Of a stretch of DNA of 64,000 nt, positions 33,539 to 36,467 are shown in pieces. Under the pieces are notes generated by a model that did not search any database, was not told the origin of the DNA, and saw nothing but the letters and a program-made list of their open reading frames with translations. The stretch lies in the NCBI GenBank assembly GCA_009838525.1, contig VXRJ01000002.1, positions 1 to 64,000 of the forward strand, given 5' to 3'. The first letter of the stretch is position 1; each line of letters opens with the position of its first letter. Source of the DNA: Acidobacteriota bacterium. Lineage in GTDB: Bacteria; Acidobacteriota; Vicinamibacteria; Vicinamibacterales; UBA8438. The position numbers and the translations under genes were made by a program.

Positions 33539-33639
33539 CTAGCTCAAATGCCGGATCTCGACGTCGCCCCAGTGTCGATCTAGGTACTCGGCCACTGCCT
33601 CGCACTCTTCTTTGTGAAGCCGATGGTCACTAGTCTCAT
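33539..33639 (-). pseudogene. Remnant of a second DUF488-family gene (large internal deletion)
   Basis: The ATG at 33639 overlaps the previous stop (ATGA) and starts MRLVTIGFTKKSA, a typical DUF488 N-terminus, but the frame stops after 19 codons. In another frame the same DNA reads EAVAEYLDRHWGDVEIRHLS and stop, which looks like the C-terminus of this family. The roughly 100-base remnant therefore seems to be the two ends of one gene joined after loss of the middle. Confidence 0.55.
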
Positions 33640-34249
33640 GACTGCAGGTCCACTGTTTCGCCGGAGGCGCCTTCGTCCACGTAGGCAATCCGTGCGGCTT
33701 GTGCGGCGTACGCTTGCTCGATCAGTTCAACCCGTGAGAAGAACAGGTTCGGTTCGGCCATGCCGAGCCGAGCCAACAGGCGGTCCACAGTCTCGTCGTG
33801 CGGTTCGAGCCTGCCATCCGCGAGGATGTGTGCGACATCCGTTCCGCGTCGCAACAACTCGCGCCCGACCAGGATCGTTCGGTGGCAGTCAATCGGGTCC
33901 TTCTCTGCGCACATGAGCGCCACTCGGTAGTTTCGTGCTTCCTGCACTACGCGGTCCAGGCCGCGCTTGAACAGGACGGTGCGAGCCAATCGCGCGTACT
34001 GAATCCGTCCGTCTTCGTAGCAGGCCGGATCCTTCGACCGCACGCCTAGTTCGCGCCCGACAAACACGTACCGAATACGGTGCTCCCGCAGGGCGTCCGA
34101 AAACGTCTCCCGATTGAACTGCGGGTTGAACGGCTGTACGGTGCCGAGCGGACGTCCGCAACCGTGGTGACGCCATGCTCTTGAACCAGGGCCACGAAGT
34201 CGGCCATCGGGTGCGTCGAGTGGCCAACCGTCAATACGGACGTGCTCAT
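33636..34249 (-). pseudogene. DUF488-family gene with a frameshift
   Basis: The ATG at 34249 reads MSTSVLTVGHSTHPMADFVALVQEHGVTTVADVRSAPYSR, the standard N-terminus, then runs out of frame. Near 34129-34132 the other frame takes over with FNPQFNRETFSDALREHRIRYVFVGRELGVR and continues to MCAEKDPIDCHRTILVGREL and the end. One extra T in AGCCGTTCAACC would restore a continuous protein of about 205 residues. DUF488 proteins carry the conserved cysteine-histidine motif seen here in DCHR. Either a real inactivating deletion or a sequencing error; the decay of both neighbours favours a real one. The stop overlaps the next gene start as ATGA. Confidence 0.75.
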
Positions 34250-34446
34250 CTGGGGCTCCCCGAACACTCGACGATTGCGGCAATGAGCTTGATCCACAAG
34301 TGGTATTCCGCACCATGATGACGGAAACGGCCCTGCACGCGTCTCTTTCGGTTCCCGAACGCTTCGCCGGGTGCAAGAACAGCAACCGTCATACGACTCA
34401 CTGTTGCAGCTCCGGTCTTGACCCAGTACTGCGCAGGATCGAGCAA
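34246..34446 (-). pseudogene. Remnant upstream of DUF488, possibly a dual-OB-fold gene
   Basis: The frame reads ENSLLDPAQYWVKTGA, then VAVLAPGEAFGNRKRRVQGRF and EYHLWIKLIAAIVE, and ends by ATGA overlap with the DUF488 start. These pieces recall, from memory, the dual OB-fold proteins encoded next to DUF488, but with internal parts missing and no start region: a stop lies at 34495-34497 and the first start-like codon is TTG. Bases 34250-34494 hold nothing else. Confidence 0.4.
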
Positions 34447-34494
34447 CGAGTTCTCCTGTTCAGTGAGAACTCGTCGAGGGCAGCGACAAACCCG

Positions 34495-34959
34495 TCATTG
34501 AGGCGTGAACCGGAAAGTCCCGGTGTGGGCCATGGCGCAATCGCGTGTCTCCCACGTGCCCTCCATCCGCGTGGTGGTAGCGATCGCCACCACCATGGAG
34601 ATCGAGCATTCCGCCGTATCGTACGGCTGAAGCGTCAGGATCGCCGTTGATCCGGCGACCGTCCCGGTCAGGGTGCCGGACCTTGTTCCATCAGCCTCGA
34701 ATACCGTCCAGAAACCGCTGAGGACGAAACCGGTCTGGAGCAACGTCAACGTTGCTGTCCTGAACTCCGTAGACAGGCTGCTGAACCATCCCAGCCAGGT
34801 TCCATTCAGCGACGGACCCGATGGGGCGGTTGGAATGGACGGGCCGAACTCGCCGCAACTGCCGGCCAGGACGGCCAACAGGACCACAGACCGCAACCAG
34901 CGCGTCCACAGGCCGACCGCGCCGAGGATCCCGCGGGGCTTTCCCGTCGATGTGGGCAT
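34495..34959 (-). CDS. Predicted lipoprotein of unknown function
   Basis: A 154-residue protein. The N-terminus LWTRWLRSVVLLAVLAGSCGEFG ends in a lipoprotein-type motif (AGSC). The mature part (SLNGTWLGWFSSLSTEFRTATLTLLQTGFVLSGFWTVFEADGTRSGTLTGTVAGSTAILTL) looks like a small beta-barrel, as in lipocalin-like extracytoplasmic proteins. It begins 4 bases after the upstream gene ends, so it is the third gene of the sirtuin operon. Confidence 0.65.
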   Translation of the reverse strand: MPTSTGKPRGILGAVGLWTRWLRSVVLLAVLAGSCGEFGPSIPTAPSGPSLNGTWLGWFSSLSTEFRTATLTLLQTGFVLSGFWTVFEADGTRSGTLTGTVAGSTAILTLQPYDTAECSISMVVAIATTTRMEGTWETRDCAMAHTGTFRFTPQ

Positions 34960-34963
34960 GTTC

Positions 34964-35725
34964 TCAGAGCACTCCAGGGATCACGGCCTTGCGTCCCGCT
35001 GGATAGTCTGCGAACCGTTCCCGATACCACCGGTGGTGGCTGAGCGCCCTGGGGACGAGGTTGGCCGCCGTGTACGTGAAGAACGCGAGCCCGCCCAGCG
35101 ACCACGTGGCCAGCGCCCACCCGAACCATTCCAGCAACTCCCCTAGGTAGTTGGGGCAGGAGACGTAGCGGAATGCCCCGCCGCGCGGGATGAAGTATCC
35201 AGTTCGGCCGGGCTTGCGCAGGCCGAGCAGGATGTTGTCCGAGTGGACATTCAGGGTCAGGCCGGCCGCGAAGAGGGCCAGCCCAGCCAGGAAACGCGGA
35301 TCTCCCAGCCACGCGGCGCCGTATTCCGCGAACTCCGAGATGAAACGCGCGTTGACGTACGCGTTGACCGCGTTGAAGGCGAACCCGGTGCCCACGACCG
35401 CAATGGGCATCCTTTTGCCCGCAGTTCGCGTCCGAAGGGAGTAGACGAAGGTCCGGTGCAGGTAGTGGCATTGCCAGATGCCGAGAAGGACCAGGGGAAC
35501 CGGCTGACTGGCCGCCCCTCCCACGAAGTAGATGGCCGCGAAGAGGGCGGTCGCGGGAAGTTCCATGACGACCCACCCGGCCCGGTTCGACATTTCCGGG
35601 CCCCAGCCGCGCCCCGAATAGTGCCGTCCGTACGGCGCGTTAAGACGTAGCAGGCTCACGAAGGTCAGGACCGCCATCGCGAACACGGCCCACACGAGCG
35701 CCCCGTGGAATGTCTGCTCAGTCAC
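34964..35725 (-). CDS. Steroid 5-alpha-reductase-fold membrane protein
   Basis: About 253 residues, with five to six hydrophobic helices. The conserved stretch GRGWGPEMSNRAGWVVMELPA and the C-terminal GGAFRYVSCPNYLGELLEWFGWALATWS with HHRWYRERFADYP match the 3-oxo-5-alpha-steroid 4-dehydrogenase C-terminal domain, which binds NADPH and acts on isoprenoid or lipid enones. The GTG at 35725 overlaps the sirtuin stop by 8 bases, so translation is coupled. The substrate in bacteria of this type is unknown. Confidence 0.82.
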   Translation of the reverse strand: MTEQTFHGALVWAVFAMAVLTFVSLLRLNAPYGRHYSGRGWGPEMSNRAGWVVMELPATALFAAIYFVGGAASQPVPLVLLGIWQCHYLHRTFVYSLRTRTAGKRMPIAVVGTGFAFNAVNAYVNARFISEFAEYGAAWLGDPRFLAGLALFAAGLTLNVHSDNILLGLRKPGRTGYFIPRGGAFRYVSCPNYLGELLEWFGWALATWSLGGLAFFTYTAANLVPRALSHHRWYRERFADYPAGRKAVIPGVL

Positions 35726-36467
35726 CGTCCCGGCGCACCAGCTCGGGCAGCACCTTGCCGATCTCACCGTGCACGACCGCGTCCGCGATGCCGTCGAGGG
35801 GGGTCGGGTCGCGGTTGACGATGATCAGCCGCGCGCCGGCCAGCCGGGCTATGCGCGGGATCGATGCGGCCGGTTCGACCACCAGGGAGGAGCCGACCGC
35901 GATCATCAGGTCGCAGGTCTCCGCCGCGCTCTGCGCCCGCACCATGACGTCGTGCGGCATCGCCTGGCCGAAAGAGATGGTCGCCGGCTTGAGGGGCCCG
36001 CCGCACCGCCGGCAGCGCGGCGCCTTCTCGCCGGCCTCGATGCGCCGGCACGCCTCGTCCGAGGTAATGCGATCGCCGCAGGTCAGGCAGACCGCCTCGG
36101 TGGTCGTGCCATGCAACTCGAGGACCTTGTCGGCGGGCAGTCCCGAGCGCTGGTGGAGGCGCTCGATGTTCTGCGTGATCAGCGCGTCGAGCCGTCCCTG
36201 CCGGTGGAGCTCGACGAAGGCGTAGTGCCCGGCGTTCGGTTGCGCGTCGCGCATGGCGGGCCAGGCGAGGGCTTTCTGCCGCCAGTACTCGACGCGTCCC
36301 GCCTCGCTGGAGACGAACTCCTGGAAGTCGACGATGCGGTTCTGCGCCCACACGCCGTTCGGGCTGCGGAAATCCGGCACGCCGGACTCGGTCGAGATAC
36401 CCGCGCCGGTGAAGCCGACTATTCGCGCCGCCCGCGCAACCAGCCGTCTGGCGCTGTCCACATCCAT
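35718..36467 (-). CDS. Sirtuin, NAD-dependent protein deacylase
   Basis: A 249-residue Sir2 enzyme. GFTGAGISTESGVPDFR binds NAD; ITQNIERLHQRSG and the catalytic histidine in ELHGTTTEAVC follow; two CxxC pairs (CLTCG, CRRCG) bind zinc; GSSLVVEPAA and IIVNRDPTPLD complete the Rossmann fold. QNIE replaces the usual QNID. It is class III-like (CobB-type) in length and is probably a cytosolic lysine deacylase. First gene of a minus-strand operon with the steroid-reductase-fold protein and a lipoprotein. Confidence 0.9.
   Translation of the reverse strand: MDVDSARRLVARAARIVGFTGAGISTESGVPDFRSPNGVWAQNRIVDFQEFVSSEAGRVEYWRQKALAWPAMRDAQPNAGHYAFVELHRQGRLDALITQNIERLHQRSGLPADKVLELHGTTTEAVCLTCGDRITSDEACRRIEAGEKAPRCRRCGGPLKPATISFGQAMPHDVMVRAQSAAETCDLMIAVGSSLVVEPAASIPRIARLAGARLIIVNRDPTPLDGIADAVVHGEIGKVLPELVRRDGD

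What the first reader, a model, noticed from the sequence alone, without database searches (positions are those of the whole stretch)
33539..34446. A decayed three-gene DUF488 module with the ATGA junctions still present
On the minus strand, a remnant recalling dual-OB-fold proteins, a DUF488 gene with a one-base frameshift near 34130, and a second DUF488 gene reduced to its two ends are joined by ATGA overlaps. Three separate lesions in one small operon point to real decay of a whole unit, and the linkage suggests that these three proteins work together in other genomes.
Basis: partly seen in the sequence, partly recalled or inferred. Interest (0 to 1): 0.5.

Follow-up and report, generated by a model that had tools for sequence, protein, structure and literature searches.

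The report
Decayed copy of candidate defence operon
A bacterium, probably an acidobacterium, carries the broken remains of a three-gene unit that many other bacteria keep whole and that is already listed as a candidate anti-phage defence system; the decay itself is ordinary.

Summary
On the minus strand at about 34479-33539 lie, in order, a gutted dual-OB (DuOB) gene, a DUF488 gene complete except for a one-base frame break at about 34130, and a second DUF488 gene reduced to its first 16 and last 17 codons, joined by two ATGA overlaps. The pieces match, in order, PADLOC profiles PDC-M45A, B and C: a decayed member of a catalogued phage-defence candidate. I count five lesions, not three. No other copy was found in the genome. 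Decay is uneven: DuOB and the second DUF488 are gutted, while the first DUF488 keeps 31 of 32 near-invariant residues after the break, so its lesion is recent or a sequence error. The site beside a SIR2 gene is shared with four of eight module-bearing relatives. Likely role, inferred: handling of nucleic-acid ends in defence by an OB-fold binder and two cysteine enzymes. Ordinary turnover; low interest.

The parts
34246..34479 (-). DuOB (PDC-M45A) remnant: about the first 80 residues of the intact protein are gone, plus two in-frame internal deletions (about 45 and 37 codons); kept are a TEQENSLLDPAQYWVK block, the PGEAFGNRKRRVQGRF block (34401-34291) and the KLIAAI end
   Evidence: no Pfam match to the remnant itself
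33636..34249 (-). first DUF488 (PDC-M45B) gene with a one-base loss of frame at about 34130; otherwise complete from start to stop
33539..33639 (-). second DUF488 (PDC-M45C) remnant: first 16 and last 17 codons kept, about 110 codons between them deleted, with the conserved LCSE...CHR residues
34246..34249 (-). ATGA overlap, DuOB stop / first DUF488 start
   Evidence: a start codon (ATG, GTG or TTG) with exactly this overlap in 16 of 48 A/B pairs elsewhere
33636..33639 (-). ATGA overlap, first DUF488 stop / second DUF488 start
   Evidence: same kind of overlap in 33 of 46 B/C pairs elsewhere, 25 of them ATG
35718..36467 (-). SIR2-family gene upstream; its orthologue lies upstream of the module, same orientation, in G010, G017 and G023 (92-93% identical) and G020 (83%)
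34495..35767 (-). steroid 5-alpha-reductase-like gene (34964-35767) and a 154-codon ORF without Pfam match (34495-34959), where those four relatives have an FPG glycosylase and a SLFN_AlbA_2 gene

Best explanation
A pseudogenised copy of the DuOB-DUF488-DUF488 module (PADLOC candidate PDC-M45), left at a chromosomal site beside a SIR2 gene. Shown: identity, order, lesions, no second copy found in the genome, and linkage of the three genes in other genomes. Inferred: when intact, the DuOB protein binds nucleic acid through two OB folds, and the two DUF488 proteins, with their invariant cysteine, glutamate and CHR residues, carry out a cysteine-dependent reaction on nucleic-acid ends or on nucleotides during phage infection. 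Loss of the module is routine turnover of a defence gene set. The first DUF488 was under selection until recently.
For: PDC-M45A/B/C hits in order; an intact relative scores 302.7, 263.2 and 248.2 bits with the same profiles. A-B-C order in 52 of 64 loci, 48 of 58 outside six loci of the window's family, and on plasmids near CBASS genes and next to Csm6. No other copy in the 96.85%-complete genome. Partial loss of the same module in relatives G018, G011, G003 and G020. The first DUF488 keeps 10 of 10 invariant and 31 of 32 near-invariant columns after the break, and its codon-position identities resemble those of functional pairs. Predicted DuOB model (pLDDT 94.7): best re-aligned matches are OB-fold nucleic-acid binders (Oxytricha telomere protein 1k8g Z 7.6, rmsd 3.1, 81 aligned, first half; BrxL 8emc Z 6.6, rmsd 3.1, 82 aligned, second half). 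Predicted DUF488 model (pLDDT 94.2): CbiF methylase Z 8.4, rmsd 3.2, 109 aligned and KAP phosphatase Z 8.2, rmsd 3.9, 132 aligned, tied.
Against: The defence role rests on PADLOC's candidate label and on neighbours, not on an assay; the flank scan was weak. The structural Z values are middling and Foldseek gave no match at E 0.001 or better for either model. The frame break may be an assembly error. The window DUF488 is only 50-54% identical to the six copies in its family while SIR2 is 92-93% identical to the nearest of those genomes, so the copy may be a separate acquisition. In G018, G011 and G003 the module does not lie beside SIR2.
Confidence: 0.85

Rival explanations
1. Only DuOB and the second DUF488 are lost; the first DUF488 is a working stand-alone gene and the frame break is a sequencing or assembly error.
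For: 31 of 32 near-invariant residues kept; codon-position identities to L047 of 65/71/39 against 64/69/39 for the functional pair L048 and L044; DUF488 of this type without DuOB in the roughly 3.6-kb loci L025 and L032 (the L025 alignment crosses a stop).
Against: No base run longer than three at the site; neighbouring genes align to orthologues without a frame break; two glycines otherwise constant in nine homologues are changed. No reads are available.
Confidence: 0.3
2. The module came to this site separately and decayed here, rather than descending with SIR2 from the common ancestor of these relatives.
For: DUF488 identity of 50-54% to six family copies against 92-93% for SIR2; FPG and SLFN_AlbA_2 genes of the relatives are missing here; the module lies elsewhere in G018, G011 and G003.
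Against: Same side and orientation beside SIR2 as in G010, G017, G023 and G020; defence genes can evolve fast (general knowledge).
Confidence: 0.5
3. Not a pseudogene but a minimal module: a 66-residue DuOB peptide kept in frame plus a DUF488 made by frameshifting.
For: The DuOB remnant stays in one open frame through two internal deletions and still overlaps the next start codon.
Against: Most of DuOB is missing; the second DUF488 lost its LCSE...CHR residues. Among 64 loci some have a shortened or split DuOB, but these look like decay too.
Confidence: 0.04

Closest known systems
PADLOC PDC-M45 (A, B, C)
   Same: same three proteins in the same order on one strand
   Different: here A and C are gutted and B has a frame break
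Pfam DuOB (PF22557) and DUF488 (PF04343)
   Same: an intact relative passes the cut-offs for both; the window's first DUF488 passes PF04343
   Different: the window DuOB remnant has no Pfam match
DuOB-DUF488-DUF4326 variant
   Same: DuOB followed by a DUF488 gene on plasmids and in two of 64 genome loci
   Different: a DUF4326 gene takes the place of one DUF488
Rhodanese-phosphatase superfamily
   Same: predicted DUF488 fold resembles PTP-type phosphatases; the partner family DUF4326 is placed there by PMC9503650 (passages read)
   Different: the placing of DUF488 itself is recalled from a 2023 Burroughs and Aravind paper that is not held and was not read

Membership tests
PDC-M45 | PDC-M45A (DuOB) gene complete | tested here: not met
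   remnant only, E 8.1e-7 over profile 143-179 of 230
PDC-M45 | PDC-M45B (DUF488) gene present | tested here: met
   E 7.6e-15 and 5.4e-64 in two frames; present but frame-broken
PDC-M45 | PDC-M45C (DUF488) gene complete | tested here: not met
   two ends only, E 4e-4 for the end piece
PDC-M45 | A-B-C order on one strand | tested here: met
   same order in 52 of 64 other loci. PADLOC's own rule for the system was not seen
DuOB PF22557 | score over the curated cut-off | tested here: not met
   window remnant: no family at E up to 1; intact relative 222.8 bits against 27
DUF488 PF04343 | score over the curated cut-off | tested here: met
   57.9 bits against 22.2
Rhodanese-phosphatase superfamily | phosphatase-type fold of DUF488 | tested here: inconclusive
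   KAP Z 8.2, rmsd 3.9, 132 aligned, tied with CbiF Z 8.4, rmsd 3.2, 109 aligned; no PDB sequence match at E up to 0.1
Anti-phage defence system | protects against phage | not testable with these tools
   PADLOC label only; no assay
BREX | BrxC/BrxD gene in the genome | tested here: not met
   none in G000

The most novel reading that the evidence does not exclude
In this lineage the working unit is a four-gene operon, SLFN_AlbA_2 - DuOB - DUF488 - DUF488, in which an OB-fold protein presents nucleic-acid ends to two non-equivalent cysteine enzymes; after loss of the OB protein and of the second enzyme the first DUF488 stayed under selection on its own, pointing to a second role for it.
Probability: 0.15. 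Interest if true: 0.5.

Novelty: new member of a known kind. Interest (0 to 1): 0.2.

Why it matters
By itself little: one more decayed candidate defence locus. It adds that this module is lost piecemeal in several members of one bacterial family, and that its gene order and one of its junctions are kept across phyla, which supports testing the three proteins together.

Tried and rejected
Rejected: chance resemblance (500 base shuffles); another copy elsewhere in the genome (the assembly is 96.85% complete); BREX as an obligate partner (BrxC/BrxD beside the module in G010 and G023 only, of 11 genomes searched); a phage origin (no match to one intact DuOB in 50,697 phage records at E 1e-5).

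Led nowhere: PDB sequence matches (none for DUF488 at E up to 0.1; three for DuOB at E 0.64-0.92); NCBIfam (none); library searches for DUF488 with dual OB, DUF488 with the rhodanese-phosphatase superfamily, PDC-M45 and DUF488 with defense system: no paper. DUF488 with rhodanese gave one paper (listing only), DUF488 with operon eleven (listing; one passage of PMC12704722 read: an archaeal ParB-CTPase-fold protein with DUF488-HTH binds CTP). One search returned unrelated papers.

Weak: the flank test for defence genes. A random 120 of 230 flank ORFs of module loci matched 284 PADLOC families (the 25 shown have 3 members each, 24 of them type I specificity subunits); 83 of 98 control ORFs matched 19 families with 1 member each. 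The number of ORFs with any hit is not given, many ORFs are mechanical, related profiles inflate the count, and 15 control ORFs were left out. Synonymous rates were saturated or undefined and not used. No gene tree of DUF488 was built. The 4-base-overlap counts have no chance control. I fetched 5 of the 13 plasmid hits. My first count of A-B-C order, 51 of 64, sorted reading frames by their upstream stop and misplaced L133; sorted by domain position it is 52.

Full report
What is there. The minus strand of 35300-32800 was read. A 66-codon ORF (34446-34246) matches PDC-M45A (E 8.1e-7); the ORF piece 34249-34049 matches the start of PDC-M45B in its first 42 residues (7.6e-15); the piece 34133-33636 matches the rest of PDC-M45B (5.4e-64); the ORF 33688-33539 matches the end of PDC-M45C (4e-4). 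The start of the second DUF488 (33639-33592) aligns to intact proteins as well. In 500 base shuffles of the segment the best alignments reached 25.0, 26.2 and 27.3 bits for A, B and C, against 56.2, 139.0 and 32.7 in the real segment.

Lesions. The translations, a DNA alignment with five other copies and tblastn with relatives show that the DuOB gene lacks about its first 80 codons and two internal blocks of about 45 and 37 codons; the two internal losses keep the frame. The first DUF488 has one loss of frame at 34130 and is otherwise complete. The second DUF488 lacks about 110 of 145 codons, with a change of frame across the deletion, and with them the conserved LCSE...CHR residues (conserved columns). 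That makes five lesions.

State of the first DUF488. After the break it keeps 10 of 10 columns invariant in 50 homologues, 22 of 22 at 95% and 31 of 32 at 90%; homologues left out in turn miss 1 at the median and 4 at most. A second test is less favourable: of 48 columns constant in nine closer homologues it keeps 41, losing two glycines among others; eight of the nine lose 0 to 4 of 48-52 when left out, the ninth 9 of 57. Identities at codon positions 1, 2, 3 are 66, 71, 38 to L048, against 64, 69, 39 between L048 and L044, the pattern of a gene evolving as a protein. So the break is young, or it is an error in the assembly.

Copies in related genomes. DuOB is found in 8 of 100 relatives, 7 over the cut-off, and PDC-M45A in 3 of 297 genomes drawn from the phylum, the window's own included: it is sporadic. 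All three genes align over nearly their full length in G010, G023, G017, G061, G122 and G146. Four others show partial loss: G018 (DuOB residues 88-232 and residues 101-145 of the second DUF488 left, first DUF488 not found), G011 (DuOB frame broken near residue 90), G003 (DuOB reduced to its last part and frame-broken), G020 (second DUF488 not found).

Copies elsewhere. One scan of genome contigs, with a DuOB alignment and a single peptide pattern, gave 64 loci in many phyla. Sorted by domain position, 52 carry A, B and C in that order on one strand, 42 of them with each protein at 85% or more of its profile in one frame; outside six loci of the window's family the figure is 48 of 58. The other 12: two with DUF4326 (A-C-DUF4326), five with A and B only, two with A only, two with A and C only, one with B and C on the other strand; some of these end near a contig edge. 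A start codon overlapping the stop by exactly four bases occurs in 33 of 46 B/C pairs and 16 of 48 A/B pairs. Of 13 plasmid hits I opened five: Agrobacterium (A-B-C, CBASS genes about 4 kb away), Allochromatium (A-B-C next to csm6, cas1 nearby), Rhodovastum (A-B-C), Acinetobacter and Citrobacter (A-DUF488-DUF4326).

Site. SIR2 (35718-36467) has orthologues of 92-93% identity in G010, G017 and G023 and 83% in G020, and in these four the module lies downstream in the same orientation, behind an FPG glycosylase and a SLFN_AlbA_2 gene. The window has a steroid-reductase-like gene and a 154-codon ORF in their place; neither FPG nor SLFN was found there. Against a fixed site: in G018, G011 and G003 the module is not beside SIR2, in G061 the contig ends, and SIR2-FPG occurs without the module in the stretches fetched from G008, G022, G026, G013 and G005, some of them cut by contig ends. 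The window DUF488 is 50-54% identical to the six family copies. Descent in place and separate acquisition both stay open. In G010 and G023 BREX-type genes follow the module; the window's genome has no BrxC/BrxD.

Function. I found no assay of these proteins in the held library. PADLOC lists the three as PDC-M45; PDC is glossed as 'phage defence candidate' in PMC11514479 (passages read). DUF4326, the alternative partner, is placed in the rhodanese-phosphatase superfamily and predicted to process phosphates linked to ribose in ADP-ribose or its breakdown products (PMC9503650, passages read) and earlier to bridge NAD signalling and DNA modification (PMC7824862, one passage read). A 2023 paper that, as I recall, treats DUF488 in the same clade and predicts DNA-end processing is not held. 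The DuOB model resembles OB-fold nucleic-acid binders in both halves; the DUF488 model resembles PTP-type phosphatases and tetrapyrrole-type methylases about equally. No Foldseek match was at E 0.001 or better and the Z values are middling. An OB-fold binder of nucleic-acid ends working with two cysteine enzymes is therefore inference.

Verdict. A confirmed, decayed member of a catalogued candidate defence module.

Noticed in passing
L048 5228-8381; L044; L045; L117: A SLFN_AlbA_2/RecG-C-like gene directly precedes DuOB (4-base overlap in L048) in this family and at about 75% identity in another family; found in 15 of 64 loci with a profile made from one sequence, one of these only a 22-residue piece. 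This suggests a four-gene form.
   Followed up: partly
L112 5995-7698; L113 1980-3643; L159; L168: Variant in which a DUF4326 gene follows DuOB and one DUF488, on plasmids and in two Pseudomonas loci.
   Followed up: partly
L052 5155-6201; L053 7748-7751; window 34479: DuOB breaks near the same residue in three genomes: G018 (residue 88, joined to a cut SLFN gene), G011 (residue 90) and the window (retained part begins at about residue 80).
   Followed up: no
L047 5-6776; L048 8467-14503: A DEAD/Lhr-like helicase, a BrxC/D and a PglZ gene follow the module in two relatives.
   Followed up: partly
L132, L141, L173: Two near full-length DuOB genes in tandem ahead of DUF488.
   Followed up: no
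mabe5be05253d residues 108-227: The second half of the DuOB model aligns to the phage-restriction factor BrxL (8emc Z 6.6, rmsd 3.1, 82 aligned); middling score.
   Followed up: no
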